Positions 24,143 through 56,941 of a stretch of 64,000 nucleotides of DNA are shown here, piece by piece; positions within the stretch are counted from its first letter, which is position 1, and every line of letters begins with the position of its first letter. The DNA is from Tetrahymena elliotti 4EA (Eukaryota; Ciliophora; Oligohymenophorea; Hymenostomatida; Tetrahymenidae): positions 623,161 to 687,160 of the forward strand of contig JH720317.1 in assembly GCA_000231825.2 (NCBI GenBank), in the 5' to 3' direction. A program made the position numbers and the translations under genes. Under the pieces are notes generated by a model. The model worked only from the letters and a program-made list of their open reading frames with translations, was not told where the DNA came from and did no database searches.

Positions 24143-25213
24143 TCAACAAGGTTAATATCTATAATAACCAACTTAATATCCACAGAATGGGCAGAAGTGT
24201 TACTTGTCTTAAAAGTTATCCATACATAAAACAGGTAAAGCACATATACCTACCACACAACAAGCTAAAAGACAGCATGTGTATGTTCCACTTCCTGTTT
24301 AACAGACAACTTAGCTCGTACCTACTCTTTAGCAGGCAGGGCATTTCATTTATTATGGAAATTAGCAATGATCCAAATTTGAAGGATAAAAATTTGCAAC
24401 AGGCTATCTTTAAACTGCAATAATTTGTTATGGTTGTCCATTAGGAATTGGTTAAATCATGATGGGTTAACCTTGAGGTAAGTTAGGATTAATCATATTA
24501 GGTCCTATAGGGGCTCCTACTGGGTAAATAGGAGGGACATATTAACCTTAAGGAGGAGGAGGAGGATTCATTTTAAGTTATTCAGCTTAGAGTTAGGGAT
24601 TACTTGGATTAGCATGATTATAAGGAGGATTTGCTTGCTGACCAGGAATATAATTTTAAGCTTAAGGCAAATTTATATTTTATCCTTAGAATTAGTTATT
24701 TTATGGATTATTAAAATCACCTTGATGATAACCGTTAGGTGGTTGCATATACATACCTTAATTATCCATGCTTGGTAAAGCAACATTTATGTTTACTGCT
24801 CCTCCAACAGGGTTTCCAGTAGCTACAGAATGTTCACTATTATAATTTCCTTTTTCCATTCCTTAACTATAGTTGTAATTAAGTTCAGGCTTAACATATT
24901 CCTTGTATTATTCATTTTAGGTTTGAGGAACATAATTCATATTAGGAGTCTACATTTAAGGAGCAGGAGGTTATCCAGATAAATCAAATCTATTTTATTA
25001 TTATTGTTGAGTATAATCAGGATACATATTGTTTGCCATCAAGGGTTAATTCATATTAAATCTTTAATTATCCATTTGGTTGTTTACATGATTGTAATCG
25101 TATTATTATTAACCAGGAGCAGGTGGAGGGGGAAGGTAATTATTATTATGAGGATTATTTCCAGATAAATCGAATCTTCCGTTATTGTTGTTATTACCGT
25201 CGTTTCTATCCAT
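24143..25213 (-). CDS. LITAF-domain protein with Pro/Gln/Asn-rich N-terminus
   Basis: A single exon of 357 codons. Residues 1-285 are Pro, Gln, Asn, Tyr and Gly-rich (for example NYLPPPPAPGQQQYDYN), a flexible region with PPxY-like and poly-Pro stretches. The C-terminal 70 residues are a LITAF (SIMPLE) domain. CPAC (about 290) is one knuckle, followed by a membrane-inserting hydrophobic patch, TYTCCLLACCVVGICALPVL, and the second knuckle HFCPFCGYQVG (about 335-345). Such proteins bind one Zn with the two CxxC knuckles, insert monotopically into endosome or lysosome membranes and act in trafficking. Pro-rich tails in the family recruit WW-domain ubiquitin ligases and ESCRT. The N-terminal half here is much longer than in animal LITAF. 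Confidence 0.88.
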
Positions 25214-25708
25214 GAAAAAGCTGCTTTTTAAATAGAGTATTTTTGCTATTTTAAACAAGATTTAATCTTTTTTTTTCTTTATTAATAATTCTAAAAAAAC
25301 AAATTGAACATAAATCTCAGATTTTTTATTAAACTCAAAATCTCATTTCTTTTCATATTAATTGTAAAGATAAATCTGATGATATTCATCAATATATCAT
25401 CTTATTATAATCATACTAACATTTATATTGATATACATACGCACATGCTGGGGGGTAGATTCCAAATTCCAACTCTCAGCGTAATAATATAAACATTCAA
25501 TCATATTATTAATATGAAGAAAATATGTTATTGAAATTAAATTAAATATTTATTAAACGCTGTATAATTTAGTAGAGATACTAATTATAAAAAATTAAGT
25601 TATTAAAAAATTAGGTGTTAGGTTTTAAATTCAGTACCTTTTAGATTGTAAATAATTTGTAGAGATACATACACACCTTATTTAAGCTAAAATTAAATAT
25701 AATAAGTT
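25214..25708. other. intergenic between divergent genes
   Basis: 495 bp shared as promoter by the LITAF gene (minus) and the large Gln/Asn-rich gene (plus). No gene was seen in it. Confidence 0.6.
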
Positions 25709-28700
25709 ATGTTCTACGGGTAGTAAGAACTACATTCTATCTAAGAAAGCTAATTTTAATAGTAATAGCAACAGTAGTAAGAATAGTAGTAGCCATCTCA
25801 ATAGTAGTAGCAGTAATCAGCAACTTAATAGCTTTTAGTTGAATCTAATTTAATTGATCAAAATGGGAAAGTTTTTAGATAGAATTAAGATGCTGATCTG
25901 ACAGATTCTAGAAAACTTAAAGATTAAAATTATTAATTAGCAAGTGATTAATTTGCTTAGATTTAGAAATAATAAAAGGCTTCATTAAGGCCTTAGTCAG
26001 CAGGAGGAAATCTGATATAGTTTTAGCACTAAAATCAATAAATTTATTAGTAAATGAATAGATAAGCTACTTAAGAATAATAATAAAGGTAACTGCTGCA
26101 GTAGCAGAGGCAACTTCTTAATCAGTAAAAATTAGAATAATACAGGTTACAGCAATAGGAGGAAGAAGACTATGAAGAGGAATAATTATTAATACAATAA
26201 TAAAAGTAAGATTCAATATTATAGGACTAATAACAATCGCAGCAGTAGCAGCCGTTACCATAAAATTCATCTCAAATAAAATAGAATGATTAAAGCAATA
26301 ATTTAGTGGAATAGATAGATGATGCATTAATTGATTTGAAAATAGGCTTAGTCCAAAGCTCTATCAGCAAGTTCGAAAATATAATACAAAAAGCTTTGAT
26401 AGAATTCTCAGATGAACAGTTTGCAAAGACATTTATTAAGATTGTAAAAAAATTAAACTTTATTTCTATTGATTATTTAAACCAAGGCGATATAAGTTCT
26501 TCATTGAAGATTTTAACCAAATGTGAATAGTGGACATAGCCTTCTGATTTTGGATTCTTTCCTGATATGAGAGCACTTACATTGAATCACATTGGTTGCA
26601 CCCATAGAAGATAGAATAATTTTAAAAAAGCCATGCTTTTCTTTGAGTAAGCACTAAAGATTTTACTGAATGCAAATCAAAGAAGTTATTTAGGAATTAC
26701 TTATTTGAATTTATCAGCTTTATGTTCCTAAATAGGACAACATAAAAAGGGATTAGAATATGCAAGAATGGCATTAGTTGAGAGTTAGCATGAATTTATG
26801 CAACTAGTCAAGAGCTAATCCCACAAAAAATTTTAAGGATAGTTAAGATTTAAAAATAATGATTCTTAAGGTAATATGAATGAAGAAAATATTAATGACA
26901 TAGATGATGAAGAGGATTTAGATTATTAAAATAAGATAAACACATTAGTTATTAGTTACCATAATATAGCAGCAGAAGAGGAATATTTTTTAAACTATGA
27001 AGAAGCTTTAATTCACTATTAAAATTCAGTTAATACATCTGAAGACTATTTGGGATCACAAAGCAAAATAACTTAACATTTTAAATAAGAATTTTCAAAA
27101 TTCTCTTAAAGATATGCTCATTTTAAAGTTCATAATAATAATGGTGTAATGGCAGGTGGATAAGGTCTTTATCCGTAATATTAGAATCAATTATTTTCAA
27201 ATACAGATTAATTTTTTGTTGTTCAAATACCCAAAGGAATGTATCAAATTTCTGAAGGAAAGAAAGGAAGAATATTATCAGCAAATGGAAAGAGAATAAT
27301 TAGAAAGAAATCTTCAAAAAAAAGTAAGAAGAAAATGATAATGATTTCTAATGGAAACAATATTCCATAAGGATTTAAACAAGCTACTCTTTCTCCTTAC
27401 TTATAACCTGTTATTCCATTAGAATAGGCTCATAATTAACAACTTGCAAACAGCCAGTAAACATATTATGGTATTAATGGATACTAATAGCAAAACAGTT
27501 AAAATAATACTAATAATCAAACAGCATTAAGTCATAAAGGATTGATTCCTGCTAGCAGCAGTAATAGCAATTTGATTAATTCTGGAGTAAACTATTAAAA
27601 CATATCTATAAATACTGCTATAAATCCTTAAAATTCAACAAGTGTAGGCCTTCTCTCTTCTTAACCTACTAAAGTGATTAATCGCCCAATGAGTGCAGCA
27701 TATGATAGCTATTACAACAACTAGCTAAATGTTACTACTAGATCTAACTTTGTAAATACTCAAAGAACTAAATCACCTCTTGTAATGAGAAGTATGGTAC
27801 CTTCTTAACAGTTATCACCCACAAAATATTAGCAATAATAGACTAAAAAAAGAAAAATTGTTTCAGGTAAAAATAAAGGATTAAAAATAAATAGCAATAA
27901 TTTAGATTTTGCTGGTCCATTTTATGAAGCAAGAGGACCTCTTTCTTATAAAGGTAGTGTACCATTAATAGCTTCTTAAACACCATCTTTAGGATCATAA
28001 TTATCACCATCTTTAACTGCACCTTTTTATTCTTCAACCACAACATAAACTCCAAATCAATAAAGTATTTCAAGTAATGGATCAAATAAACTGTTGTTTG
28101 CTTCAGCTTCTAATAAAAATATGAATCCGATTTACTAAGATTAGAATTCTTTTTAAAGCTAGAGGAAACTTATAACTTTTTCTTAAAACTAAAGTGTTTC
28201 AAGATAATTAACATCAGAGTTTGCTTAAAATGATCAGACTTTTTTCAAAACAAGTAGATAAAATAGTAATTCTAATCCTTAAGAATTTGTTTCAGGTCAA
28301 AGCTAGCCACCAGATACTTTATCAAGGATACAACTCTTAGAAAACTTAAAATAACAATATCAAAGAGCTCAAAATAACGTTTAAAATATCTAATTAAAAA
28401 TTCAACAAGAAATGCTAAAAAATGATAATTATAATCCTAATCAGGCTTTTGGTAACAATAATCAAAACATTGCTTAGGATTATAATAGCATGAAAAGGAA
28501 GCTTTCATCTCATAATGGTATAGGATAAATGAATCATAAGAAGACTCCTTCATCTCTTTCGAATCAAAATTACCAAACTGCATAAAATTAAATTTAGAAT
28601 TAAGTAGGATAGACACCTTACAATAATCTTACTAAGAAATACACACAAGATAAATTTGTTATTAGAAATCCTAAAATTTCGTAAATAGCTTCTGGAAATA

Positions 28701-31700
28701 ACTCAAAAAAAGATTAAACAAATAAACAAAGTAGCATGTAGAATTACAGCAACTAAAACATTTCAAAGTAGTCATCACAAAATGACTAAATTGATGAAGT
28801 TTTGCAACAAAATATGCTAATGCAGAACAATGGAGAAGGTATAGGGTAATCAATATAAATTCAATAATAATATAATTCTAATAACGTTTACAATTAGTAA
28901 ATTCAATAATTAAATAACACAAACACGGACTAATCATAAAATCAACAAAATATGTAAATGAATTAAAGTCTTTTGTTATAGTAATAACAATAATTATTTT
29001 AATAATCTACTTAGTAACAAATAGAAATAATTTTAGAAAATCCAAGAATTTAGCTAAAAGAATTAAGAGACCCCAAATTCAAGTCTTTTGATGGTACTCT
29101 CAAATTTACTCTTAACAAATAAAGATTTTTTATTTCAATTCAATTTGAGAGTGAAAGGTTAAGTAATTAAATTTTTGAGCATTTCATTAATGTAAGTGAT
29201 ATTTTCCATACAAAAGATTATGATTACTCTTAAATTCAGTAATTGATGCTTGCTTTTTGTAACGAAATAACGAAATTTTTATATGTTAATCTCTTGTAGG
29301 AATGTTTGAGTATAAATTTTTAGTCTTTGTCTTCACTTTTAAATACCAATACAAACAATGCAAGCAGCAACAACAATAATAATAATAAAAATTCTAACAA
29401 CAGTGATACCAATCAAAATTCATAAATCTAATGCATCCAAAATGTTATACTATTTGACAAAGTTCCAATAAAGTTGGACTTAAAAAATGTTTAAAGAGAA
29501 TTAGATATTGTGGTTAAGAATAATTCAGAAAGTATACTTTTGCTTTGTGATGATCCTGCAACAGCTATGGCACTAAGAATGTAAGATAATGTCCAAAATA
29601 GCTAACAAGTTGGGGAAGATGATAATATTAAGCCTTTAGTAAATACATATTTGATGCAGATTTAAAATGATTAAGGAGATTTAGCAAAAATAGATCAAAG
29701 TTAAGATTCAATCACTCCCATTATTTTAGATCCAAACACACTTATGGATCAGAATATCCCAGATTTCTCTGATGGATATAAAGATTATTTGTAGAGCCCA
29801 TATTCCAATAATAGAAATAAAAATGGTAAGAATGGCAAGTAGAATATCTATGCTGGAAATGACATGATTCCAGAGCTAGAGGAAGCTGACACATTCTCTT
29901 AAATGAGAAATAACAATGGAACACCATATAATAATAATGGAAGCAACAATATTAGTAAATAAAATCAAAATTATGATGGATAAATGAATAAAGACAATAA
30001 CTAGATTGATGATTATGATGAAGAAATTTTAGATGATATTCAGGATTATGGTGATGATTTTGAAGATAATTTTGATCAATAAGTAATGGATGCTAAAGAA
30101 AAGAATCCTAACAAAGGTAAATTAGCATCTCGACCCAAAAGTTCTTATAAAAACAGAATTGTATAAGATAAAAAAATAAAAAACGAAGAGGTTTAAGAAG
30201 AAATAGTAAAAGAAGCAGGGCAAAGCAAGTATGGATTTTAAAATATGTACCAGTTAAAAAAGCAGTAGTAAAGAGATAATAGATTGTCTTAAATTGAAAA
30301 TGAATTTGACATACCAAATGATGATGAAAGATTTGGTAAGTAGAAACTGGATAATTTTGAGTTTGAAGATATAGATAAAGACTCTGCTTTCTAATAGAAT
30401 AAAAATGAGCACAGATTTGACGATTCTGCAAATAGTTTGGAATAAATTACTCATACTATGGAGAATGGCAATAACAGTGGAAGGAAACATAGTACATTTA
30501 AGTCTATGAAAGATTCAACTCCTAAAAATGATATTGACGTTAATATATTTAAAGTTGATAGTAAAATGAGAGATAGTAGCGCTAAAAATTAGAGTTTTGG
30601 TGAAGAATTATAGATGTCAAAAGGCAAATAATCTTCTCAAAATAGAAGGAATACTCCTCCTCCAAAGATAGTTATAAACAATGGATTTGATAATGAAGAT
30701 CCATATATAGCTTATGATAGTGCTTAGAATGATGATAAATTATAAAAAGAAAAAGAAGCTTAAGAAGCTAAGGAAGAATTTGATAAGTTGATTTAAGAAA
30801 AGGGTGAAAAAAAAGTTTCTGCTGCTGCAACTTTTATTTAGTTAAAATATAAAAAGAAAAGAAACTAAAAAATAGAAAATGAGAATGTTATTTAAGAAAA
30901 AAGTGATTAAAATAAATAACAATAGAATAAATAAGTAGCAGAGGAGCCTCCAATAGATATAAATGATGAAAATAGGTAGGATTTTGAAAAAGCAGCTAAT
31001 TTAATTGGTTCTAAATTTAGGATGAGATAAAAGAAAAAGAAAATTGAAAATGGGTAGGAGTAAGATAAAGCGAAGAATAAGGATTAATAGAAGGAGAAAG
31101 AAGTACAAAAGAATAATGATAATACTTAAAAAAAGAATGAAGTAGAGGTTGTATTAGAAGGTCCTATAGAGGAATATGAAAAAGTAGCTACTCTTATTGG
31201 AGGAGCATTCCGATAAAAGAAAATGAGATAGAAATAGTAAGATGAGTAGAAAAAAAAGGAATAAGATGAATAATAATAAAAGTAGATTAGTTAAAAGAAA
31301 GAAGAACCACCTGTAGTCTTAGATGGCCCATTAGAAGAATATAAAGATGTAGCTAGTAAGATTGAAAATGCTTTTTTGCTGAGGAAAAAAAGATAATAAG
31401 AACGCCAAGAAGAAGAGAAAAAAAAGCAATAAGATCAAAATAAGAATGAAGATAATACTGATAGTTTAAAGAAGACTAATCCTTCTATGTTTATATCATT
31501 TGGTGCAAATGGTCTAGACAATGGCAGCTAAACATCTAGCCAATTTCCTACCATTACAGATGAAAATAATTAATTGCCAGTAACAATAATAGATGGAGGA
31601 AAACCTAATTAAAATAATGAAATGAAAAAAATTCCCAATTCAACTGATATGCTTTTAGATAAAAATTCAAGCAGTAGCCATTCAGCTAGTAATATTAATG

Positions 31701-31867
31701 AAAATTTAGATAATTTGAATGAAGAAAACAATAATCCAGAAGCCACAACATAAAAATAAGGAGGAACAGTAGAAAAATAAAAGAAACCAGTTAAAAAGAA
31801 AGCATAAGTGTAGGCAAATTTCAAATTGAATAGAAGATGGAATTAGAACCTAGGATTTAATGTTTGA
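25709..31867 (+). CDS. Large Gln/Asn-rich protein with TPR-like repeats and IQ-like motifs
   Basis: One exon of 2,053 codons without an in-frame TGA, far beyond chance. Residues 1-215 are largely Gln, encoded mostly by TAA/TAG runs. Residues about 230-450 are helical and TPR-like (for example FKKAMLFFEQALKILL followed by TYLNLSALCSQIGQHKKGLE). Residues 450-1100 are Ser/Asn/Gln-rich. Residues about 1110-1260 form a more ordered part (KSFDGTLKFTLNKQRFFISI) that I do not recognise. An acidic and Lys-rich region follows. Between about 1700 and 1890 four related segments repeat: AAATFIQLKYKKKR, AANLIGSKFRMRQKKKK, VATLIGGAFRQKKMRQ and VASKIENAFLLRKKRQ. They resemble degenerate IQ motifs, which bind calmodulin-like light chains. 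A Ca2+-linked scaffold is an inference. Confidence 0.85.
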
Positions 31868-33579: not shown

Positions 33580-34584
33580 TCAACAATTATTACACTTTTT
33601 GTCCTTTTTCTTAATTTTTTTATTTATTTAAAAGAACTTTCTCTTTTTGTGTTTTTACAAGCTATCAAGAAGGGATTTATTTTCATATGAAAGTAAAAGG
33701 AATTAAATCACTTTTTGATGTGACAATAAATCTTGAATTTTGCTGTTTTGTAGCTACTAATCAATAAAATTTGTAAGAAAGAACTTAAAAATTGAGGAAT
33801 ACTACTAATGATTAATCAACAAACATACGGTTTAGTGATTGAATGGTTTATTTTCAATATACCTTTTAAATTTCTAATATATTTCTATCAAGTTGTTTTC
33901 TCTTTCTTGTTAATTCTAATTAAACAAGCTTTTTATTTGACTTTGGGTGCTCTCCATAGTAAATTACTCTACATCATTAGAATTAAGGTAATCTTCAATT
34001 TTAGGTTGCTAAAAAAATCCAATTCTTTCATAGGGTTTCTTAGTATTATCTGTTATGGAATTTTGCTTTGTGTTTTCTTCTGGGTTTAAAACCAAATACA
34101 TAAACTTTTTGAATGAGTACATTACATTTTTTATCACATTTTTTCTCTTAGCCTAATTGATTAGTAACAAATCATCCTGATCAATGTTTTCATTTCTAAT
34201 TTCTTCTTCTTTGCTTTCATTTATATCCTTTATTTCTTCTTATGTTGGAAAATCTTGTTACTCTGACTCGTTTTCAGCTTATTCTAGATTAATTGAAGTA
34301 TTGGGCTTCTCTAAAGCTAGCTGATAGAAGTCAGTGTTGGCATTTTCACTCCTATTTATACTGCTTGAACTAAAATTGACCAGAGAATTTTAACTCATTT
34401 TGTCATTTAATATGATGACAGTTTAATAGTTTTGAGAAATATAATTTTAATCGTTCTTGTAATCGTAAAATACAGTATTTTAATTGGAAGTTATATCAAT
34501 TTAAGTTGAGAACTGAAATTTATTTTAGTTTTTAATCAATTTACTATTGGTATCCTAGCTGCTATTTTACTTTATTTATTTCAT
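33580..34584 (-). CDS. Family-1 paralogue A, unknown conserved C-terminal domain
   Basis: 334 residues from the first in-frame ATG (34584) to TGA 33580. The frame stays open and protein-like up to an in-frame TGA at 34732-34734, so a 5' exon is likely, possibly with an ATG near 34771 or 34833. The N-terminal part is polar. From about residue 145 come KNVIKNVMYSFKKF, FKRYIENKPFNHQTVCLLI, QYSSIFKFFLTNF and HQKVIQFLLLSYENKSLL, matched segment by segment in the genes at 36.8-39.0 kb and 42.1-45.0 kb. The domain is helical, basic and aromatic and resembles no family I know. The end is very Lys-rich (KHKKRKFF, KKIKKKDKK), which would suit nucleic-acid binding or nuclear targeting. That is inference only. 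Confidence 0.72.
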
Positions 34585-35838
34585 TTTTGGACTTAAAGAT
34601 GTAAGAATAATATTAAATTGTATTTTCTTAATCTTTTTTGAGTTTTTGATAACTTAAGAATTAAGTGTAGTAAATTTTATTTCAATCACGCAACTCCTTA
34701 GCTAAATTTCAATTTTGCCTCTATTTATATGTCATAAATCTTTCAATAATATTAAACAATTCCTTTATACTCATATCATATAATTATACACTATTTCTCT
34801 TAAATTATTAATAACTACACTTTTACACTTCATGCTCTTTAAATTTGTAAGTTAAAACCAACTTAAACATTTTGATTTTATTTTATAAAATACATTTTTG
34901 CTATGTTAAAATTACTTCTTAGATAACTTAAATTTTTGTTCATTCATTTCTTGTCTAAAATTAATCAAACTGAGGATAAATTTTAATTTTCTTTAACAGA
35001 AAAAAAAATTAATTCCACACAATGTCTATAATATCAATTTTTTACCTTCCGAGTAAAAAAATGTTTCTTTTTTCTAATTTTCATAACAAATAAAATTTAA
35101 TGATATCAATAATCGTTTACTCCTTTAAGAAAATATAATTACTTATCTACTTCAAAAAATTATACAGTAATTCTAACAAAGTTAATTTAAAATTTCAATG
35201 TTACTCAAAAAATAATCGAAATGAATTTTTTGATCTAGCTTTGATTATATATTGAATTGATCAAGTTTTAATTCATTGAAATTCTTGAATAAATTAATTC
35301 TTATGATTCATACCAATTCCAACTTTGAATGTTTAATAAATATATTTTGTTGCTTATATTTTAAATATCATGGACATCAAAAAGTTAAAACATTTTCATT
35401 TTAAAAATATATTTTTCATATAAAAATAACTTTTTCAATAACTCTATCATTTACTAGATAATTTTCACTATTTTTTCAAAAATTATTAATATTTTATCAT
35501 AAATTAATAACTTTAACTCCTTAAAGTTAATATTCTATTTATTAAACATTAAAATATTTTTTATATTAAACTGCTCAAATGAAAAATTTAAATTTATTTA
35601 AAATAAAAATTATTTGGTTTTTTCATAAACTTCACTTAATTATTATTATAAAAACTCATAACGAAAATATATCTATTAAATTAAAAAATTAATTTTGATA
35701 AAGATTATATCCTCCTAATTTAGAATCTGGGTAAATACATTAAAAATTATAATGATTATTTATGGATCATCACTACAAATTTATGCATTAATATAATGTG
35801 ATATTTCATTGTTAATTTTTTGAGTTTACACAAAAAAA
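34585..35838. other. intergenic or 5' region of paralogue A
   Basis: The first 150 bp continue the open frame of paralogue A. The rest is AT-rich. A perfect 12-bp inverted repeat starts here (35795-35806), with its partner at 35846-35857 just inside the next ORF. Confidence 0.5.
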
Positions 35839-36306
35839 ATGCATTAAATATCACATTTGTTAAGCTCAGATTTGAAATGCATATAAAATCAAAATTAAAT
35901 AGAAAATAATGATATTTTTCTTACATAATTAAAAGAGTAAGATTAAATTCAAGAAGATTGGAGTATATTAATTAAAAAGCTAAGTTACTCACAAGTATAT
36001 ATTTATTGGTTGTAATCTTAAATTGGATATTAAGCATATTTATCAGATTTTATGGTTCAGAACCAGGAATTTCTTGAAAAAATGTAAGAGAAAGTAAGTT
36101 TATCGGATGATTATGAAAATAAAATAAATACTACTTCAATATTAACTGGTATCTATCTTTTCCATTTTTTAGAAAAGATGTTGCAATAATCTAATAAATC
36201 AGTATCAATCAATTTAAACAATAATAGATTAAAATTGAATTTTCTTTTTTCAATTAATTCAATTTAACTTTTTTATGATAATTAAATATGTTTTACTTTC
36301 TTTTGA
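35839..36306 (+). CDS. Hypothetical protein, 155 residues
   Basis: An open frame of 156 codons from ATG 35839. Its first 90 residues have a protein-like mix of charged and aromatic residues (QIQEDWSILIKKLSYSQVY, FMVQNQEFLEKMQEK). A strong donor-like GTAAGT follows LEKMQEK (36094) and an acceptor-like TTTTTTAG lies at about 36170. The frame also reads straight through, so whether there is an intron is unclear. No family recognised. It is the only plus-strand call among the three minus-strand paralogues and shows no similarity to them. Confidence 0.42.
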
Positions 36307-36770
36307 ATTTATAAATTGTGCAAAATATTTTAAATTTTAATAAAATATGTAAAAGAAACATCAATTATTTTGTTCTTAAACATTCTGTGTATAGATTCAA
36401 TAATTCATGTTATATAAAAATATCAAAGTATTTAATAGATAATAAATGTATCAAATTTAATTCAAATTAAAATGATCATTAAAAAAAATTTTTTTATTTA
36501 TTAATACATTTAAGAATATAAATTGACTTTGTTTTTATTTTTTCATATCATGTTTTAAAAATATGTATTTATTTAATTAATTATAGGACTGTAGATTTTC
36601 TAAGCAAAACAATAAAAAATAAATAAAAGGATGGTTGATCTACAAAGTAAGTTTAAACAATTGCAAAAAAATAAAATGTTGATACATATTTTATTTAAAA
36701 TTAAATATTTAATATTTTTTTTTTCTTTTATAATGAAATGAATTTTTAATTAAAAGAGCTAGAAAACTTA
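36307..36770. other. intergenic between convergent genes
   Basis: 464 bp of AT-rich DNA with nothing recognisable. Confidence 0.6.
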
Positions 36771-38952
36771 TCAAAGTGTAGATTCCTATTTTTAATAATT
36801 AGCATGCTAGAGTTGTTCAACTAATTAGGGAGAAGTATAAGATTTGAGAAGAAATTCAACCATCATCTAGTGAGAGAAGCGATCGTTGACTTTTGAATTA
36901 ATTAACCAGTTGGATACGAAATTTTGTAAATAATATTTAAATATTAGTGTATACTATTAATGCTATAGAAGAAGAGACAAAGTATAGTGATTAAAAAGTT
37001 TATTATCCAAGTATCTTTTATATTTCTTAAGAAATTTCAATTCATCTTCTATGTTATATATATTTTCATTTTTATAGTAAAATGATAATATTTAGCTGCG
37101 AATTTCTTAGAGAAGTTCAGGATTTATTTATTAATTTTAATCAAAATAAACATTAATGCTGGATTTCTTAAATAAGTAATCCTTTTTCATTTTTTTTTTA
37201 GTTTAGTTTTCCTTCTCAAAAAGAAGGACTACAAAGTTTTTGAATGAAGTCATCAAGTTTTTGACAACATTTTTCTTTTATATTGTATTGATGCTAGAGA
37301 GAAGGCTTTTTAAATTTGGTTTAATCTATTGATAATTTGATACTTCATCATTTTCAGTATCATCCTTTTGATTAGTTTCTTCAATTGTAGAGTAATGCTT
37401 GTTTTGTTAATCGTCAATATATTGGTCTTATTCTAGTTAATATAATGAAATATTTAAAAATTTTGTCAAAAGAGAAAATAATTTATGAATAAATTTATGT
37501 AAATAATTACAATAAGCTTGAAGGTCATCTTCGTTTTACAAGATAATTTGACTGCTACGTAATGAATTGAGATGATCTAATTTATCCTAATTATTTTGTA
37601 TCAAGTGGATAAATTAATGATGAGAATTCATAGAGTTTTCACCCATTTTTAATTAAGTAGATATTTGAATTGATTAATTCTGATAATTTGAAACGCTTTG
37701 CTATTGTTGGTGGTTTTAAGTGAAGTAGTAATTACTTGAACTAGGATTGATTTCAAAGCAATCAGCTGTAACTAAACATTAGGGAATATCTTCCTATATG
37801 ATCTGATGAAAAAAGGGAAAATTTTAATGATCCGATAGATGGGAATTTTATTGAGAAATTTCTTAATTTTAATTATCTTCTTATTCTTGAAAGTGCGTAT
37901 CTTGAATTTTTGTGTTTAAGATTTCTTTTTGACCTTAAAAATACTTATTTTATTGGTTCTGATCTAGCTGAATTACTTGCTAATTTGGATTTTAAGAGTT
38001 TTTCTCTGCTTTTACCGGAGTATTTTGAGTTGTTTGGCTTCTTAGCACCCTCTTTGGAAAAGAAGAAATTTTCTGCTAAAAAGCTATGAGTTTTTGCTTC
38101 TTTTTTTCCATTCTCTTAATTTTTATTTCACGAGATTTTTGCAAACTGTCAATTAACTCGCCCTTAATTTCTTAATTATTTTTAACTTTTTCTTACGCAA
38201 TTTAGTTTTAATTTATATTATAAATAGGGGTAACTTCTTTGTATTATTCCTAAGTGTTTTCCATCAAAAAGTCATTACTTTTGCCATTCTAATTAGAACC
38301 AATAGTTTATAACATTGCTTTTTGAAGATCGCAATTAAAATCCAGATTTTGATACTCCTTCTAATAATCCTCCTCTTCATCTTATAGTTATCTCAAATCA
38401 ACACATTTTGAAGATTATTTTTCTTGTAATCCCATCTGTGAGTTCTTCATTTTTATTTCCTGATTGCCATTAAAATTATGATTAAAGAAGATCGTTTTGT
38501 TGTTATTGTTATTGTTATTGTTATTGCTGCAACTTTTTGCAGAGTTATTGTTATAATTAGTTGGAAGAGAAAAGGGACTATGCTGTCTTTTAATTTATAT
38601 AATAAATAATTATTTGCTAATTATACAAAAGTGAATATTTTTAAAATGCACAATCAAAGTTTTACCTCTAGATAAGGTTTACACAAAAGCTATTACCTGT
38701 CTCGTTGTTCTAGATGCTAAGAGTACTATTAAAATTAGGGAATTGAGTTACATATAAATGGTGTTTTCCAATAATAAATATGATAGATATAATCTGCATT
38801 TGTTACTCATGTTTGTATGTGTATTATGGATTTTCGAACGGTTGTTATGGATGGTTAAAATGTTATTCAGAAAACAAATAGGGTAGTTCTTGGTACTAAT
38901 AGTAGGATGATGCATCATATCTCTGTCCCTTTTTTTGTTATAAATCTTACAT
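36771..38952 (-). CDS. Family-1 paralogue B, unknown conserved C-terminal domain
   Basis: Exons are 38952-38752 and 38582-36771, joined in phase 0 over a 169-bp intron, giving 670 residues. The start is MQDLQQKKGQ. An alternative donor at 38697 would change only the end of exon 1. Residues 60-480 are low complexity: a run of nine Asn encoded by AAC/AAT (about 85-93), acidic DEEEDYQKEYQ, a Lys-rich KRMEKKKQK and many Gln. Residues about 490-660 carry the shared domain: KNVVKNLMTSFKNF, YKRYLDNKLFNHYTLSLLL, QYTLIFKYYLQNFVSNWLI and MMVEFLLKSYTSPQLVEQL. Coding is certain from composition and from its paralogues. Function is unknown. The disordered N-terminus and conserved basic-aromatic tail are the family plan. 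Confidence 0.8.
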
Positions 38953-41900
38953 TAGAAATTTAAAGATAGCTCATATAATCATAAACAATCAATCAACAGA
39001 CACATAGAAAGAAAGAAAGAATGTTGGTAAAAGTAAAATTAAAGTAAAAATTTATTCCTTCTATCAATAAAAAAATTTATTTACATCTCTCATCGAATTT
39101 GTTTCATTAAAGATATTTTAATCTTCTCCATACAGCTAATTGTCCATAACACTAAAAAAAATTAAAAGAATATTTGTTAGCTCGTTTGTTTGTTTTAAAA
39201 TACCAAATAGTTTTTAATTTGATTAGATTATTTAAATTATTTGTACAACTCAGAGAATTTTGATCTGAATCTTCTTTTCTCAATATTAAAATTTTTTACT
39301 ATTTAAAGCAAAATCTAATATGGTAAGGGCTCTTCCTTCTTATTTTCTCACCAAAAATATTCCCTGAATTCTAAAAAAAACTGCTAACTTAAATTTACCT
39401 TAATCACCTCTAATAAAGACAGTTGAATTTTATTGTTAACCTTGAGTAAGAGATAGTAAGATTTGAGTCATTAAGTAGCTGAAAATAAATAATACAATCA
39501 TTTATAACTCTTTTTTGAGTATGTATACCAACTACTATTTTAGCAATTTTAGAAGATTTTTTTTGTACCAATCAAAAGAAAGAATAATCAAATTCTACAT
39601 AGTCATTTTTGAAATACTTAATTTTAGCCTAAAAATAATTAAGGTATTTCTTAAATTTTAGACCAATAGATCAAATATCACTTATATTAAATTACTTTCA
39701 TTTTAAAATCTTAAAGGAGTATTAACAAAAGTGAAATTAAGATTTGTTTACAAATTCTTTAATTATTTTGAGGGTGCATAAAACCAAGTAAATTTTTAGC
39801 ACATAAATATATCAAATTAAACATTTTTCTTATACACGCTCTCTGTTTTAACTTAAAATTTTAATTGAGTAACTTGAATTACAAAAATTATACTCATAAC
39901 TTTTCTAATTTCACTTACAAACTATTTTTCATTTTCAATAAATAAATAATCATGTTTAAATTCAAAATTTATAAATGAAATCAAAAAAATTATTTTTCTT
40001 TTTTCAAAAAAACTTTAAATTTATTTAATAATTTATTGTTTTGAAAATATCATTTAAGAATATTTAGAAGTAAAAATTTGATAAAATTTTATTTTATTTG
40101 TTTTTTGGTGGTTCTTCAGATACATCTTTTATTTGAAAATAAAAAAAGAAAAGAAATATTTTAATGGTAATTTATTTGTATTAATTCAAATTTAAAGTTT
40201 CAAAGAAATTCAATGATGAAGAGAGAGAATCAATAGAAAACTAAAATTACAAAATAGAGATAACTTTTTTTCTTTATAAAATATGCAAGATAAATTAAGA
40301 TGTATTCTCTACAGTAGTTTGTATATTATTCTAATTAATTAATAATAATAGATAGAACTCTCAATGTCTTAATTTTATTTTAATGATAAAGAGTTAGAAA
40401 AAAGTAAGTTCTAATATATTTTTCTCTTCCTATAAAATTTGTTCTCTCTATTAATAATATTTTTAAATTAACTTCTTTAAAAAAATCTATTTTAGATATA
40501 AGATAAATATACTTCACAACTAAGCCAAGTGATTTTTTTAGATCAAGTAAGAAATATGCTAATTTAGAATAATAAACAATTGAGATAAACGATATGGTTT
40601 ATTTACTTTTAAAACAAAAGTGATTATCAAGTGAATAAAAAAATGATTTTAATTTTCGAGAGCAAATACCTTTAAGTTGAAAAGAGATTTTAAGTTTCTC
40701 TATTTTCAAAACAGCATTATGAGCTTTCAATGTTTTTATCAGACTAATTTTATAATTTAAGCTTGATTTTAAGTTTTGATAGTAGTGTGTTTGAAAAAAT
40801 TAACATGATATCTAAACAGATAAAATAATCTTTTTTGAAATTAAAATATAAACAGAGGATAAGAAAATATGTTAATTGATTGGTTTGGTTTACGTAATAC
40901 AGAAAGGCTATATATCACTCACTAATAAAAGAAATTAAATTTGTTAAAAAATATCAAAAAAAGATAAATTGTAAACTATTATTTATTTTTTGAAGATAAT
41001 TAGTGCAACCTATTTAAGTAAGGTAAAATTCTAAAAAATTTATTTTGATAGAACAAAGATAAGAATTAGTTAGAAGGTATATCAAGTTGCTTACTTATCT
41101 TTAAGCATAAATCATGTATTAATGCGGGCAAAAATACATTGAATAAGGTCAATTATTTTATCTTCATATTTAGTTAAATCTTGTCTTACTTTAATTAAAA
41201 TCAAATTATTCATTTAATCTTATATTTACTTCTTTGTTTTAAAAATTTCAGTCTCTGGTGTAATTTTCTTATCATTCAATTTATTTTATAAATCCTTTTT
41301 TAAGGTAACTTTTGATATTTATTTTATTTTAGAATAAATAATCCTCTTTGTTTAATTAGATAATTAATTAATGGTTCAGCGATGTTCATTTATTTTCTGG
41401 TAAAAAAGAAAACATTATAATTAAATTTTAAAAAACATCTAATCAAAATTGGTAGAATATTTATTTATATTATTTCAATATTTAGATCAGAAATAGATAA
41501 AATATTAATTTTATTCATTTATTACTTATGAAAAATAAATATTCTTTTGAAACAATATTATTAAAAGATAAATGTTTTGCTAAATTTTAGATTTATGATA
41601 ATTATTTCTTTCTTTTCAAAGTATTTTTTAATACAAAAAGAAACTTATTTTATTAATATAATTGAACCTTTGTAATTATTAAAATGAAAATTAACAGAAA
41701 ATATTTTATTTAGAGTGAACAGAAAAAAAGAGAATCGCTATTTTTTATTTTTTAAATTTAATAAATTTACGTTTGAATGTATTTTCTATTTACTGAACTA
41801 ATTTTTTTAATTTCTTGCCTTTGTTTAATCCTGTTATTTTAAGTGTATTTTATGTTTTATTTGGCAAAATTAATATTAATTACATGTTGCAAATAAGCTT

Positions 41901-42117
41901 TAATTATGAATAATTTTAAAGTGAAAAAGATTTGATAAAATGATTTTAATATTTTAGTAATATCTTTGTAAAAATAAAATTTTGAAGGAGGTTATAAATG
42001 AATTTAGAATTTTGTTTACAATTTTTCGAAGAAGAAGAAATGTAAAAAAAATTAGCAATACAAATTATTTGTTAATTTAATTAAATGTTTCATTCACCAA
42101 TAAAATAAATAAGAAAA
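38953..42117. other. gene-poor gap between paralogues B and C
   Basis: About 3.2 kb of very AT-rich DNA. A small secretory-type ORF at 39280-39501 is listed separately. A plus-strand frame open at about 40480-40879 (containing FLDQVRNMLIQNNKQL), with possible upstream exons from 40283, looks partly protein-like but two frames compete for it, so it is not called. A short minus-strand Lys/Pro patch near 40125 (DVSEEPPKNKQ) could be an exon end. Confidence 0.4.
39280..39501 (-). CDS. Doubtful small ORF with signal-peptide-like start
   Basis: 74 codons. The first 20 residues, starting MIVLFIFSYLMTQILLSLTQ, look like a secretory signal peptide and are followed by GQQQNSTVFIRGDQG. The frame extends further upstream without a stop. 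A GTAAAT donor right after GDQG and a nearby TTTTTTTTAG suggest splicing into a second frame that stays open to about 39090. Without a relative to compare, neither form can be confirmed. Confidence 0.28.
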
Positions 42118-44983
42118 TCAATCTTTATTTTCTTCTTATAAGATTATTTTGTTTTGTTTTTTTTCTACAAGTTATTAAGAATGTATTTTTTGAGAAATCA
42201 ATTATATCATATCATAATGTGATTAATAATTTTTTATTTTTGAATTTATTACCCAATTTTTAGCAAAGTTCTCCAAAAAATAATTAAAAATCTATGAATA
42301 TTATTTATGTTTTAGAAGAAGAGAAAGTGTTTGATTGTTAAAATGCTTATGATTTATATATCTTTTGAATTTTTTTAAGAAGGATTACTCATTATCATCC
42401 TGATCTTATGACTCATTATTTAGATATATCTTTAAAACTTCTTTGCGAATATCATATAAATTATTCTTTTCTTACTCTTAAAAGTATATGGAAATGTTAG
42501 ATTTCTAAAATTGATGGTCTTTTTTATTCTTTTTTAGGGATTGAGTCTCTTTCTAAAATAATATGGTCACAAAATTTTTAAAAGATGTCATTATATTTTT
42601 CACAACATTCTTCTTCTAATGATTAGCAAGCTCGTAACTTATTTCTGCTTAATTTAAATGTAGAACTGAATTGCTTTCCTATTTTTTTAAACTCATATCA
42701 GAATAGTCCAAATAACCAATTTCTTAATCAAGTTCTGAGGTCAATTATTTATCATATATTTTATTACTGCCGCAATCTTACATTTGAAATTTAGTGTAAT
42801 TTCTTGCTTCTTACTCAAAAAATTGTGAGCTATATTAGCTATTTAGCTAAGTAAAGCTCTTTTCTTAGATGTTACAATTTTCATTTTCACTAGATGAAGC
42901 TGTGTTTTAATTATTAAAATTTAAAGGAGTAAACTAATCAAAATACAATTATTCTTAACCTTAATTTGTGTATGGGTGGTCATCATCATTACCATCATCT
43001 TTTTCTTCTTGAATAAATTACTAATCAGTTTTTTGATTACTTACAATCTAACCATTAATTGAATAGGAATATTTACTTTGATTATCTCTAGATAATTTCC
43101 TATTATTTTAACAATTATCTCTAAAGTCATTTTACTACTAATCAATAAAGTAGCTCTCATTGAATTGTTATTAATAAGAATTATTTCTATTATCTTAGTA
43201 TTATACAGTCTATTCATTAAATTAATTAGTTTGATTTGTTTAGTTTTATTGCCATTCAATGTACTAGCTATTTTAATTAATTTATTTTTAATTATTATGA
43301 AGGGATGACTAGACAAAATATTCATTTTCGTATTAATTTTAGTTACTTTAAAAAATTGATTACTCTGATTAATACACATTTTTATTTTGTTCCTTTTCAT
43401 AAGTAATATTATTTTCACTTATTTAGCTTTTATTTTGCAATGAAGTTCTATCAATCTAATAATTACTTGTTTGCTCAGAAGAATTAACTTGATTTATTTG
43501 GTTTTATTATCTATTATTTGATAATGAATAATCTTATTGATTCTCTTGAATACACTGATTACTTTAATAAATATTTTCTTGAGTATTATAATTATTTTAA
43601 TTAATTAAATTTGTTTTATCTCTACAATTAACTTATTGTTGATATCCACAGCTGTAATCTTTCATTTAGTTCATAGGAACTTATTTATAATTAAGTGGAT
43701 TAATAAATTTGTTATTATTTGTATTTTTTTCAAAAAAATTATCAACTTTGCCATTTAGCTATCGACCATTGTTAACATTAAAGGTATTCTAAATATATGA
43801 ATCATCTTATTAATTGTTAATAAATAAATTATTTTAATGTTCTAAAAGAAGGTTATTACCATTATTCATTCTTTAAACATCCTAAAAATTAAATTATTCT
43901 TGATATTCACCACTAAAATCTTTCATTTAATTGATAGAAATTTATTCTTTGCTAAGAGGATTAATAAATATATTATTATTCGTATTATTTTACTCTATAC
44001 AATTATTAAATTTATCATTCAATTAATTATTAAAATTATTAGGATAACAGATATTTTGAATAAAGTTGTCATTTTTTTAATCATCAAAACATTTATAATT
44101 ATAGTATTAATGATTATCATCATTTATTTTTTAAGTATCCTAACCATTTAAAAAATATTCATTTTAGATTTAAAATAGACTTCTTTCAGCTTGTATTTAT
44201 TGACATTAAAAATTAAGAGAATTTTATTATTTTTAGTTCATTTGATATTATGAGGTATTTATCATATTTTTTGTGTAATTATCATTCATTTTAAGTTAAT
44301 TATCTTTTTCTTTTAAGCAGCTTATTGATTAATTTAATTGATTGCTCTAAAGTTTTTATTGCTTCATTTCATATTTGATGTTTTTTAGGATATGCTATTG
44401 ATTACGCTCCACCATCTATTGCTAGATTTCGTTTTGTTTTTACCTAATTTATTATTAATAATGTTTAGATAGTTTTTAATTAAGCGAATTCTGAATAAGC
44501 AAAAAGCTTATCTTTTTTTAATTAAATCTTCTGCTAATATTTTATTGGAAAAGAAATTTACATTTATTTAAATTTTTCTTGTCTAATAGGATCATTACAA
44601 TAGATTTATTGATACTGATTTCCTCCTGATTTACCAAATAATTTTTATGATTTTTAATTAGTTTCTTCATTAATATTTGTTTACAAATGGTTTTGTAAAC
44701 TTATTCTTTCTTCTAGCTATTGCTATTTTGAATTTCTTCTATAATAACAATAAGAAACATTGTCTAATTGTTTCAGCTCCTAAGGAATGTAATATCCTCC
44801 TTCTACATTCTATCTAAAGAAATTATTTGTTATCAAGTCATCATCTTTTTTATGATTCTATTTACAGAAGCAACTATAAATCGAATAGTTACTTTGTTTA
44901 ACATCTTGACATTTGTACTCAGTATCAATTTCATAGCAATCAATTAATGAACTATTCATTTTATAAAAAAAAGGATTAAACAT
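42118..44983 (-). CDS. Family-1 paralogue C, Asn/Gln-rich with unknown conserved C-terminal domain
   Basis: From ATG 44983 (MFNPFFYKMNSS; the frame is open further upstream, so a 5' exon is possible) to TGA 42118, about 945 residues. The frame changes near 44561-44531. A 28- or 31-nt GTAAAT..TTAG/CAG intron restores phase exactly, although a one-base indel would look similar. Residues 150-770 are Asn/Gln-rich with a duplicated block, INPLSKEQISINQMKDFSG and INPLNYKQVPMNQMKDYSC. The shared domain spans about 775-930: KNVVKNIMTSFKNF, FKRYINHKHFNNQTLSLLL and QYSQIFNYFLENFAKNWVI. It is the largest family member here. The N-terminal 150 residues contain several Cys (CYEID, CQDV, CFCKQ) not found in A or B. 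Confidence 0.74.
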
Positions 44984-52433: not shown

Positions 52434-53921
52434 TCATGAGAAATCTCTCTCTGGGAAAATAGAGGGAGCTACAAGGGTCCAGATATAAAGAAGAGAAGAT
52501 GCCCAGGAAACAATAATTTTTACCCAATAGCTACTCTAAGATGGTTGATACATGTTAAATGTAGAGGCATCCATATCAGGAGATCCCCAGTTAGTTAATA
52601 GCATAGATCCATAAACTGAGGAAGTAAGCATTACAATATGGAAAATTATATAGGTGTTAGAATAAATATATGGACGAAGTTTTTTGTCACATTTTAGATA
52701 TTTTTAATATTCAATTTCTTCAGGACTTAATTATTATTATTATTCTTCAGGATTTTTTTGGTTTGATTCTTAGTTTTTTTTATTCATTTTGTTAGATAAT
52801 TGTTCTTCATCTTCCTCTGCTTCATTTTCTTCTGATTCCTCTTCTTGGTCATTATCAGCTAAAATAGCTCCATTTAATTCAACATTTTAGCTCACAGGTA
52901 TACGTCTCTAGCTACTTTCTTTTGTTCCAAATGTTAAATATAGCTAAACAATAATTAAAATCATAAGACCAACAACGAGTTCAACAGTAAAAATAGAGTT
53001 ATTATCAATTGCAAGATTACAAGATGATTCTCCTGAAAGCTGAGCACTAAATGTTAAGAATGTCATATATAATCCCTAAGAACCGCTACATATAAGAGAG
53101 CCATGAGGATTATATCCAAGTAATTAGACAACAGTAATACCAATTACTAAAATTAGGTTAGCAATATTGATAAAAGTATTCAATCCGCAACCATTGAACC
53201 AAATAAAATTAAGGACAACTAATGTAATAGTCAATCCATAAAGAACAACAGTTGTACCAATAAGAACTGATCCCATCCATTCAGCACCTTCATCATATTT
53301 GGCTTTCCATTTTAAACCCCACATATAAAAAATATCTATCAACATGACAGATTATATCACCAAAAAGATAGCACCAAAAATACGAGCAAAGTCTCTATAT
53401 CCATCAAAGAATGAATAATCGATGTACATAAACCCAACAAAAGTTCCAATAATAAACAAAAATTTCAATATCCAAATTCCTTCATTAATCATTTTACTGC
53501 ATTCGTTTCTACCCCAAACTGCTATCAATATCAAAGCATACAAAATAGCTAGTGAAAAACTTATTCTATAAACTGAACTTACCTATTTATTTTGTTAAAA
53601 AAAAAATGTCTAAATTATCTCTTTGGTGATTTTTAAAATAGGAAAATTCAAAATTCTATTCTAGATATAAAATATGTTTACGCCTAAACAATTTAGCTTG
53701 CCTCCTGCTTCCTCTGGACAATGAATAAATGAAGAAAAGTAGTCGAAAGCACTTTATACATAGTGAAGAACTATGATAGCGAATAAAAAGAAAAATATAT
53801 TCATTAAGACATAACTCAATCTAATTTATTGCTTCATTGTCATTTTGCAGCAGCATTTAAAGCACGCACAGCAAGCACTGCATACTTCTCTACCTGCACA
53901 GCATATAATTGAAGTGCACAT
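52434..53921 (-). CDS. SERINC: SERINC/TDE1 family membrane protein (serine incorporator)
   Basis: Exons are 53921-53682 and 53582-52434, with a 99-bp intron in phase 0, giving 462 residues (family usual 400-500). The start [10 protein letters not shown] leads into the Cys-rich N-terminal segment typical of the family ([12 protein letters not shown]). About ten hydrophobic helices follow. Diagnostic pieces are [19 protein letters not shown] after the first loop, [20 protein letters not shown], and the C-terminal signature [12 protein letters not shown] ... [10 protein letters not shown] ... [18 protein letters not shown], which ends the protein as in animals and plants. SERINC proteins are multipass proteins of plasma and vacuolar membranes with lipid scramblase-like behaviour. 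They were first described as aiding serine incorporation into phosphatidylserine and sphingolipids. A long acidic cytosolic loop ([15 protein letters not shown]) precedes the last two helices. Confidence 0.95.
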
Positions 53922-55595
53922 TATGAACTATTCTACCTATTTAAAAATTCAAATATTATTAATAACTTTATCTTATTGGTTGAGTATTTTAATAATTTTT
54001 GTGATGAAAGATATCAAACTATTTTAATTATTAGATTTTATAAATAAATTATACAGTTTATAAATAATTTACCTTCAAACAAACATATTCTCAAATAATA
54101 TTGTAGAACAAAATTATTACATAATAATCAATAATAAATTAGCTAATCACTAAGTAACACACAACAAAATTTTTTGTTAAGCTCTGATCAGTGTCTCTTC
54201 TCTATAATTTAATTTAATTTACAAAATTTAAACTTTAAATTTTTAATAGATTTGATAAGATCTGTATAAAGACTGCTAGTTAAATAGGTTGAAATAAGGT
54301 TAAATATTTACATAAATAAAACAAATTTATTTAAGCTCAAATGTAATTTTCACTAAATCAAAAGTTAAAAAAATAAATTCCAAATATTTTTAATATTTTG
54401 AAAAGAATAAACATATTTAGTAAATATAAAAATGATCAAACAAAAGTAAATTTATTTAGAGAAACATAGATTTTGAAATTCTTAAAGATAATTTAAATTA
54501 AATTTTATTTTAAATGAAGAAAATGGTGATTATGCAGTTAAGTTATCAACTAACTAGTGATAATAAATTTTAATTTTAAAGTGTCTAAATACAATAATCC
54601 TAGTCTTTATGTAGGATATCATATTTTTTTAAAAAATCTATCAGAATAAATCTGGAAAAGAAGCTGTTATTAAATTAAAAAACTCATTTGAGTAAATAAA
54701 TAAGCCCATTTAAAGTATTTTATTTTTTAACTAAAATATAATTTTAAAAATAAACAAAATCTTTTAAAATTATTTAAAGGAAATATATAAATAGATTTTA
54801 ATATCACTTAAAATAAGTAAAGTCAAATGAACATAAAAGTATTAGGAAAAATAAAAAAATAAAAAATTTTAAGAGAGAGGTAACTTTTAAATATTTATTC
54901 CAAAGTTGTTTTATTACATTAAAAATAAAAAATAAACAAATAAAATAAATTAAGTTAATCTCAAATTCTCCTCCCCTTATATTTTATTAATTTGAGACTC
55001 CAAATATTGTTTTAAATTTTTAGAGTAAAATATTTAATTTTATCAATAGAGAAATTAGAAGAATACAAAAATGTATTATCAAATAAATGACTTTCCTCGC
55101 ATATGTAATGAATAGTATATTTTAAAATCAACAAATACTGAAAACATGTAAAAAAAATTTAAAAAAACAAACTTTTTCTATCTATCAATCTAGTTTTTCT
55201 AATAATATATGAATTAGATTTTAGGTTGTAAAGAAAGTATAGCTTTAAATGTTTCATAAATGTTGTTTATTTTAAACAATAAAAATAATATATTCTTTCT
55301 TGTATAGTACAGTACTCTCATTAATTATTTTTATCCATTAAATCAATTAAATTTTTTATTTTTAAGTATTTAACTACTATATAAAATAAATCAAATATTA
55401 GTAAAAATAAAGACCATGTAAAATAGATAATTAACCATATTTGGATGAGAAGTATTATAAAAAAATAGTGAGATAGCTAACTATTTATCTATCTATCTAT
55501 TAATTTATATCTAAAATAATTAAATTATTTATAATCAATACTTAAAGATAAAAATTCTAAACAAATTAAAAAAAGAATCTATCAAAAAATAAGTA
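53922..55595. other. intergenic between divergent genes
   Basis: About 1.67 kb of AT-rich DNA between SERINC and the kinase. A short TCTA tract lies at 55482-55500. No gene was seen. Confidence 0.6.
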
Positions 55596-56941
55596 ATGAA
55601 TTATAATTTTAACATAGGCCAACCAAATAAGAATTAGGCTTAAGGCCAGCAATAGAATTATTATTAATAGCCTTAATAGTATTAGTATTAGTAAGTACAG
55701 CAACAGTAAGGCAATCCAAATTAATAATAGTAATGGCAATCTCCTCATATAAAATATAATTTTATTCAAAGTAAAAATGGGTAATAATAAGCTACATATT
55801 AACCAGTATTTTAGTAACAGCAATATGTATAATAATAAAATAACTAAATGTAAAATTAATAATATATAAAAAATCAATATTAGAATCAAAACTAATATTA
55901 GTAGACAAATCCAGCAGTATAAATTTAATATGGCAATATAAAAATATTTTAAAACTTTACCATTTTTCTGTCTAATAGTTTAGGAAAAGGATAATATGGT
56001 GAAGTTTTTTTGTGTATCGATAATAGGACATAGAGATAGTATGCTTGTAAAATGATAGCAATACATTAGCAATCTAATGTTCTATAAGAGCTTTAAGTTG
56101 CTTAGTAAATTCAGGGAGAGTTCATCTGCGAACTTAAATATGCTGGTATTTCATAAAATTACTTGTACCTTATTTCTGAATACTGTCCTGATGGAACTCT
56201 CAAGTAATGGTACTAAAATAAACAAAAATTTTCTTAAGTTCCTCTTAATGAAATTATGAGAATATTTTTACAGATTGTCAAAGGCTACAATGATTCAATA
56301 AAAAGTAAGGGTTTTATACATAGGGATTTAAAACTTGATAACATACTTATGATGGATGATAAGCCTAAGATTTGTGATTTTGGTTTTGGTAAATTTTTAG
56401 ATGATGTAAATGTCTCTATTGAGATGTCATATAAATGTAAATTAATAATTATCAGCATTTCTTTTAAATAGATTTTAAATCATTTTATAAAAAAGGTACC
56501 CCTTTGTATGGAGCTCCGCAGATTACTAACACCCCAGACATGAAGTATAGTTATAAAGCTGATATATATAGTTTAGGAGTTCTTCTTTACTAGTTGACTA
56601 ACAATTTATTAAACCCAAACCTAATGAAAACGTAGGCTGAATTGGTAAAGTTTCATGAAAGTAATAAATAAGAAGGAATAAGAAAAACTTTGTAATTTTA
56701 AAATTATGTTCCTCAGATTATCAAAAATATAATTTATGAAATGATGGAGTACACAGAAGAGGCTAGAATCTCTATTGAAGATTTATTGAAAAGGGTTTAA
56801 GAAATTTGTAATTTCTTAAGAAATCCTACTGGTACAGGTTTTACAGGTTTTAGCGATTAAATCAATCATGACACTTTTGCTAATACTATTAATAACAACA
56901 ATTAAATGAAATACAATTTCAATGGCAAAACAACTAGTTGA
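55596..56941 (+). CDS. Serine/threonine protein kinase with Gln-rich N-terminus
   Basis: Exons are 55596-56436 and 56472-56941. The intron is only 35 bp (GTAAAT..AAATAG, phase 1), giving 436 residues. Residues 1-115 are Gln/Asn/Tyr-rich. The kinase domain begins FTIFLSNSLGKGQYGEVF (Gly loop, about 128). The ATP Lys is in YACKMI (about 150), the catalytic loop is HRDLKLDNIL (about 241), the metal motif is DFG in ICDFGFGKFL (about 260), and the activation segment ends GTPLYGAPQ. Helix F is KADIYSLGVLLYQL. All catalytic residues are present, so it should be active. The APE Glu is Gln, and an insert (NDSIKSKG) precedes HRD, as in some ciliate-expanded ULK/Aurora-like groups. I cannot assign a subfamily. 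The C-tail of about 50 residues is Asn/Gly/Thr-rich. Confidence 0.93.

What the first reader, a model, noticed from the sequence alone, without database searches (positions are those of the whole stretch)
33580..44983. Three-member local gene family with an unrecognised C-terminal domain
The genes at 33.6-34.6, 36.8-39.0 and 42.1-45.0 kb are all on the minus strand. Their N-termini are unrelated and low complexity, but their C-terminal parts of about 150-175 residues align in order: KNVIKNVMYSFKKF / KNVVKNLMTSFKNF / KNVVKNIMTSFKNF; then FKRYIENKPFNHQTVCLLI / YKRYLDNKLFNHYTLSLLL / FKRYINHKHFNNQTLSLLL; then QYSSIFKFFLTNF / QYTLIFKYYLQNF / QYSQIFNYFLENF. I know no family with this signature. Conserved tails on fast-changing disordered heads suggest a real domain under selection in a tandemly expanding ciliate family.
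Basis: seen in the sequence. Interest (0 to 1): 0.78.

Follow-up and report, generated by a model that had tools for sequence, protein, structure and literature searches.

The report
Tandem ciliate genes sharing domain DUF4441
Three neighbouring ciliate genes share a helical tail that is already catalogued as a domain of unknown function (DUF4441); it belongs to a large Tetrahymena gene family whose job is still undescribed, in which the tails change slowly while the long glutamine- and asparagine-rich heads change fast.

Summary
In detail: the three C-terminal segments align far above shuffled controls. 'Unrecognised' does not: all three match Pfam PF14536 (DUF4441), 64-81 bits against a cut-off of 24. 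The genome holds at least 156 such places on 47 contigs, 111 of them in 25 clusters. All named relatives returned are Tetrahymena. AlphaFold2 predicts a fairly confident all-helical domain (pLDDT 83.6) with no significant match among solved structures listed. Where measurable the domain is under purifying selection and heads drift faster. Added here: a long-form clade that holds the window's genes; some long-form members whose domain is 90-100% identical between species, against 74% for window gene 3; a K-rich + PKRxLRSQ element in some heads; a consistently basic domain; and a PDB chain (7w5z U5) that is a family member by sequence but is missing from four other entries of the same complex. 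I lean towards nuclear regulatory adaptors, by inference only. Known domain, unknown function: moderate interest.

The parts
33580..34689 (-). gene 1, open frame (code 6); first ATG at 34584
33649..34143 (-). DUF4441 domain of gene 1 (residues 183-347 of the frame; lacks the W that most members have)
   Evidence: PF14536, E 7.8e-23, 81.3 bits, profile 1-116
36771..38918 (-). gene 2, open frame (code 6); its upper part may be intron or lie in another frame (inference)
36807..37274 (-). DUF4441 domain of gene 2 (residues 549-704 of the frame)
   Evidence: E 1.5e-17, 64.3 bits, profile 1-114
38034..38135 (-). lysine-rich stretch + FPKRVLRSQ element in the head of gene 2
42118..44983 (-). gene 3: main open frame 42118-44760, probable upstream exon in another frame to about 44983
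42154..42612 (-). DUF4441 domain of gene 3 (residues 717-869 of the frame)
   Evidence: E 9.4e-18, 64.9 bits, profile 1-114; AlphaFold2 model

Best explanation
Identity (shown): three tandem paralogues of the long-form clade of the DUF4441 (PF14536) family, a multigene family with at least 156 places in this Tetrahymena genome. Mechanism (inferred; the confidence below is for this part): long-form proteins act in the nucleus as regulatory adaptors. A disordered Q/N-rich head, often opening with an acidic-aromatic stretch and in some members carrying a lysine-rich PKRxLRSQ element that could serve import or docking, recruits machinery. The basic C-terminal helical domain, with its nearly invariant N-x2-KN motif, binds a conserved acidic partner (a protein or nucleic acid). 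A few members keep a strongly constrained role; array copies such as the window's three keep the binding domain and vary the head, so that each could couple the same target to a different input.
For: PF14536 matches of all three genes. Purifying selection on the domain in the 5 of 13 pairs with unsaturated dS, dN/dS 0.14-0.33 against 0.42-0.67 for the heads. Domain 90-100% identical between species in four long-form members. Net charge of the domain +5 to +17, median +11, n=101, against a median of +1 in 194 windows of 10 other genes. N7, K10 and N11 present in 101, 100 and 100 of 101 domains. Head element PKRxLRSQ with K-rich lead. Best acidic-aromatic window of residues 1-60 at or above the 90th percentile of the head in 10 of 12 long homologues. 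No strongly hydrophobic stretch in these homologues (maximum 19-residue mean 0.63-1.27).
Against: No expression, localisation or binding data. No known DNA-binding or chromatin domain was found in the three proteins or in eight homologues. No fold match that would point to nucleic acid binding. The PKR element is absent from window genes 1 and 3. The acidic-aromatic score was chosen after looking, and 2 of 12 proteins fail it. Basic charge is not unique: 8.8% of control windows reach +11 and one control gene (RsfS frame) has a median of +17. A family member is the listed sequence of a mitochondrial complex IV chain in one PDB entry.
Confidence: 0.35

Rival explanations
1. Cytoplasmic signalling or recognition family: the constant domain docks on one cellular hub while variable heads and tandem gene birth give species-specific responses (food, environment, mating, defence).
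For: Tandem arrays (111 of 156 places in 25 clusters), fast heads. PMC6564038 (passages) reports that young, tandemly duplicated Tetrahymena genes evolve fast and are weakly expressed in axenic culture; DUF4441 is not among its seven expanded domains.
Against: Domain 90-100% identical between species in four long-form members; no receptor, membrane or signalling domain in the proteins scanned.
Confidence: 0.25
2. Structural scaffold of the ciliate cortex, basal body or cilium, with the helical domain as an assembly module.
For: Many paralogues of helical, disordered-head proteins would suit ciliate structural families (general knowledge); no direct evidence here.
Against: None of the solved-structure sequences, apart from 7w5z U5, match the family profile at E up to 10, which includes whatever Tetrahymena axonemal entries the copy holds (not checked).
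Confidence: 0.15
3. Mitochondrial complex IV subunit family, as the listing of a DUF4441 sequence for chain U5 of 7w5z would suggest.
For: 7w5z_U5 matches the family profile at E 1.1e-45.
Against: A SURF1-like chain of the same complex is in 7w5z, 8b6h, 8bqs, 8gym and 8gzu, whereas U5 is in 7w5z alone. U5 is not among the 32 matches or the 50 of 52 shown. The printed U5 start is acidic (4 K/R, 9 D/E in 45 residues), unlike a presequence.
Confidence: 0.05
4. Neutral expansion of largely functionless copies.
For: Large number of copies, a few partial matches or frames with a TGA, fast heads.
Against: Purifying selection on the domain in all 5 measurable pairs (4 from one array, 1 from another); N-x2-KN kept in nearly all of 101 domains.
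Confidence: 0.04

Closest known systems
Pfam PF14536, DUF4441 (domain of unknown function)
   Same: All three segments match above the curated cut-off over essentially the whole profile.
   Different: The window's long-form members carry a longer insert after the first helix and long Q/N-rich heads; nothing contradicts membership.
T. malaccensis ABPG74_000681 (P0001)
   Same: Nearest relative of gene 3: 71-74% identity in the domain, Q/N-rich head.
   Different: Head only 28% identical; orthology not proven.
T. thermophila TTHERM_00716120 (P0045; L012 in this genome)
   Same: Long-form member, same domain and head style; domain 143/144 identical between species.
   Different: Far more conserved than the window's gene 3, and alone on its contig in the list.
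PDB 7w5z chain U5, 172 residues
   Same: Family member by sequence; nearest in this genome are L017 (54.1% over 122 residues) and L016 (54.0% over 126).
   Different: Short form; listed in complex IV in one entry only.

Membership tests
Pfam PF14536 / DUF4441 | Score above the curated cut-off (24 bits) | tested here: met
   81.3, 64.3 and 64.9 bits
Pfam PF14536 / DUF4441 | Match covers the whole profile | tested here: met
   Profile positions 1-116, 1-114 and 1-114 of 116
Pfam PF14536 / DUF4441 | Core residues N-x2-KN, F, N, W, H (constant positions found here) | tested here: met
   Present in the three genes except the W in gene 1
Mitochondrial complex IV subunit | Present in independent structures of the complex | tested here: not met
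   Family sequence in 1 of the 5 entries that hold the SURF1-like chain
Mitochondrial complex IV subunit | Modelled chain has the predicted DUF4441 fold | tested here: inconclusive
   U5 not among listed fold matches; whether the library holds that chain is unknown
Nuclear transcription regulator | A known DNA-binding or chromatin domain | tested here: not met
   Only DUF4441 above its cut-off in the three proteins and in eight homologues
Nuclear transcription regulator | Nuclear import signal | tested here: inconclusive
   K-rich PKRxLRSQ element in gene 2 and some relatives, not in genes 1 and 3; the function of the element is a guess
Nuclear transcription regulator | Nuclear location and effect on transcription | not testable with these tools
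   No expression or localisation data available
Any fold family with a solved structure | Significant structural match | tested here: inconclusive

The most novel reading that the evidence does not exclude
DUF4441 is a fold of its own, so far seen only in Tetrahymena, that binds nucleic acid or a core nuclear complex and has founded the genus's own family of more than 150 regulators: a few nearly frozen members plus array copies that vary the head on a constant binding tail.
Probability: 0.15. Interest if true: 0.7.

Novelty: new member of a known kind. Interest (0 to 1): 0.35.

Why it matters
A family with at least 156 places in one protist genome, some members with a domain 90-100% identical between species, and no paper found under its name or accession, is a gap in the biology of a model ciliate. 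The slow and fast members, the nearly invariant N-x2-KN motif and the PKRxLRSQ element give concrete handles for tests. The question over 7w5z chain U5 also matters to users of that structure.

Tried and rejected

Literature: 'DUF4441', 'PF14536', six TTHERM identifiers and three more gave 0 papers each in the held open-access library; broader searches gave nothing on the family. Zhou et al. 2022, the 7W5Z paper, is not held. Of PMC10060162, PMC10227065 and PMC6564038 I saw passages found by search terms, not the whole texts, and no supplements.

Relatives outside Tetrahymena: three protein searches returned 1, 43 and 11 proteins at E<=0.001; 54 of 55 are named and are T. thermophila, T. malaccensis or T. 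utriculariae; one is an unnamed metagenome protein. The word-based candidate step and its length limits could miss distant ciliate relatives. A scan of viral contigs was not possible with the alignment.

Selection: 8 of 13 pairs were set aside because dS of the domain was near or beyond saturation, all three window pairs among them; of the 5 usable pairs 4 come from one array on contig C7. The head figures include some upstream sequence that may not be coding. Not all array members are fast: two short array members are 85-91% identical to relatives in other species, and of the window's genes only gene 3 had a near relative to compare. L009, one of the four slow members, lies in a two-member cluster.

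Complex IV control: COX6B and CDGSH families found no match in this genome; SURF1 worked.

Tree: 72 of 101 domain rows were used; 19 of 120 domain hits had been dropped as duplicates or with over 30% gaps, and of the protein rows only those among 20 that I had labelled went in. Window genes 2 and 3 stand in it through loci L002 and L001. It is a quick tree on 124 columns with 27 of 69 inner branches open.

Full report
OBSERVATION. The three minus-strand genes and their ordered C-terminal motifs are real. C-terminal alignment scores are 313, 246 and 428 against shuffled means of 56-63 (maximum 101); 0 of 500 shuffles reach the observed value for any pair. The heads score like shuffles. That search was unmasked and also gave spurious Q/N-rich matches, so the gene model is provisional.

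IDENTITY. hmmscan assigns all three segments to Pfam PF14536 (DUF4441): E 7.8e-23, 1.5e-17 and 9.4e-18; 81.3, 64.3 and 64.9 bits against a cut-off of 24; profile positions 1-116, 1-114 and 1-114 of 116. 'No known family' is therefore refuted, although the name says only that the function is unknown. Text searches for the name and the accession found no paper in the held library.

FAMILY. A six-frame search of the window's own assembly (90.0 Mb, 134 contigs) scored 150 of 181 candidates, all 150 above the cut-off, so the count is a lower bound. With six further places there are 156 places on 47 contigs; by a 15 kb rule 111 lie in 25 clusters, 24 of them on one strand throughout. Some places may be fragments. 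Homologues from three protein searches (1, 43 and 11 at E<=0.001) are all from Tetrahymena where named (54 of 55). Along the conserved member L012 this genome is 78-81% identical to T. thermophila, T. utriculariae and T. malaccensis, so it is a further Tetrahymena. Its size and base composition resemble those of T. elliotti in Table 1 of PMC6564038 (passage), but the species was not determined.

CLADES AND RATES. A quick tree of 72 domains separates a 29-row clade (support 95) that holds all three window genes and the other long Q/N-headed members from the remaining, mostly shorter, frames. Between species the domain is identical at 143/144, 142/144 and 142/144 positions (L012), 135/137, 131/137 and 132/137 (L015), 128/128 (L009), and 158/171 and 154/171 (L003), while heads are 41-79% identical. 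Window gene 3 has 123/167 (74%) in the domain and 28% in the head. Two short array members (L013, L011) are in between, 85-91%. Of 13 paralogue pairs, 5 have unsaturated dS in the domain: dN/dS is 0.14-0.33 for the domain and 0.42-0.67 for the heads; 4 of these 5 pairs are from one array. The window's own three pairs are saturated. Where measurable, then, the domain is under purifying selection and the heads are under weaker constraint.

HEADS. Gene 2 carries a lysine-rich stretch followed by FPKRVLRSQ at 38135-38034. The pattern [FLI]PKRx[LI]R occurs in 8 of 118 pooled family entries (gene 2 counted twice, as window and as L002), and outside the pool in 2 of 3438 open frames. Both of those lie at the upstream side of family members L003 and L007 and are probably their earlier exons. 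Genes 1 and 3 lack it. Long homologues often start with an acidic-aromatic stretch: in 10 of 12 the best 30-residue window of residues 1-60 is at or above the 90th percentile of the rest of the head; P0049 (0.64) and P0055 (0.34) fail. The score was chosen after looking. No homologue has a strongly hydrophobic stretch (same call).

MECHANISM. The best-supported guess is a nuclear regulatory adaptor with a variable head and a constant basic binding tail. Shown: a conserved, selected, basic, helical tail and fast heads. Inferred: nuclear location, partner and effect. No known DNA-binding or chromatin domain accompanies it. Rivals are a recognition or signalling family, a cytoskeletal scaffold, a mitochondrial subunit, and neutral expansion.

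THE 7W5Z LEAD. Chain U5 of the Tetrahymena complex IV entry 7w5z is a DUF4441 protein by sequence (E 1.1e-45). As a control, a SURF1-like chain of the same complex is in 7w5z, 8b6h, 8bqs, 8gym and 8gzu, whereas the U5 sequence is in 7w5z alone. Neither family model listed U5 by fold (32 of 32 matches shown, 50 of 52), although I could not confirm that the fold library holds the chain. PMC10060162 (passages) counts 11 canonical and 42 ciliate-specific complex IV subunits and mentions a previously unassigned one; I did not see its subunit table. I read U5 as a likely provisional sequence assignment, not as evidence for a mitochondrial family. The map must decide.

NOVELTY. The domain is already catalogued, so these are new members of a known, uncharacterised kind. 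I found no description of the family's size, its slow and fast members, the head element or the doubt over U5 in the searches made.

Noticed in passing
PDB 7w5z chain U5 (outside the window): The listed sequence is a DUF4441 protein, yet four other entries of the same complex lack it; possibly a provisional sequence assignment.
   Followed up: partly
L003:3-944 (+) and L007:309-863 (+): Open frames carrying the PKRxLR element beside DUF4441 frames, probably earlier exons of those genes.
   Followed up: partly
16398-17963 (-): Schlafen AlbA_2 domain protein (PF04326, E 2.3e-14).
   Followed up: no
4300-5454 (+): RsfS ribosomal silencing factor domain (PF02410, E 3.9e-18), in a very basic frame.
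   Followed up: no
25535-31864 (+): One open frame of 2110 codons with a single weak TPR stretch (TPR_12, E 3.8e-7); the rest matched no Pfam family.
   Followed up: no
24146-25342 (-), 52437-53948 (-), 55449-56938 (+), 58192-59244 (-): Ordinary neighbours: LITAF-like zinc ribbon protein, Serinc, a protein kinase split over two frames, and an enoyl-CoA hydratase/isomerase.
   Followed up: no
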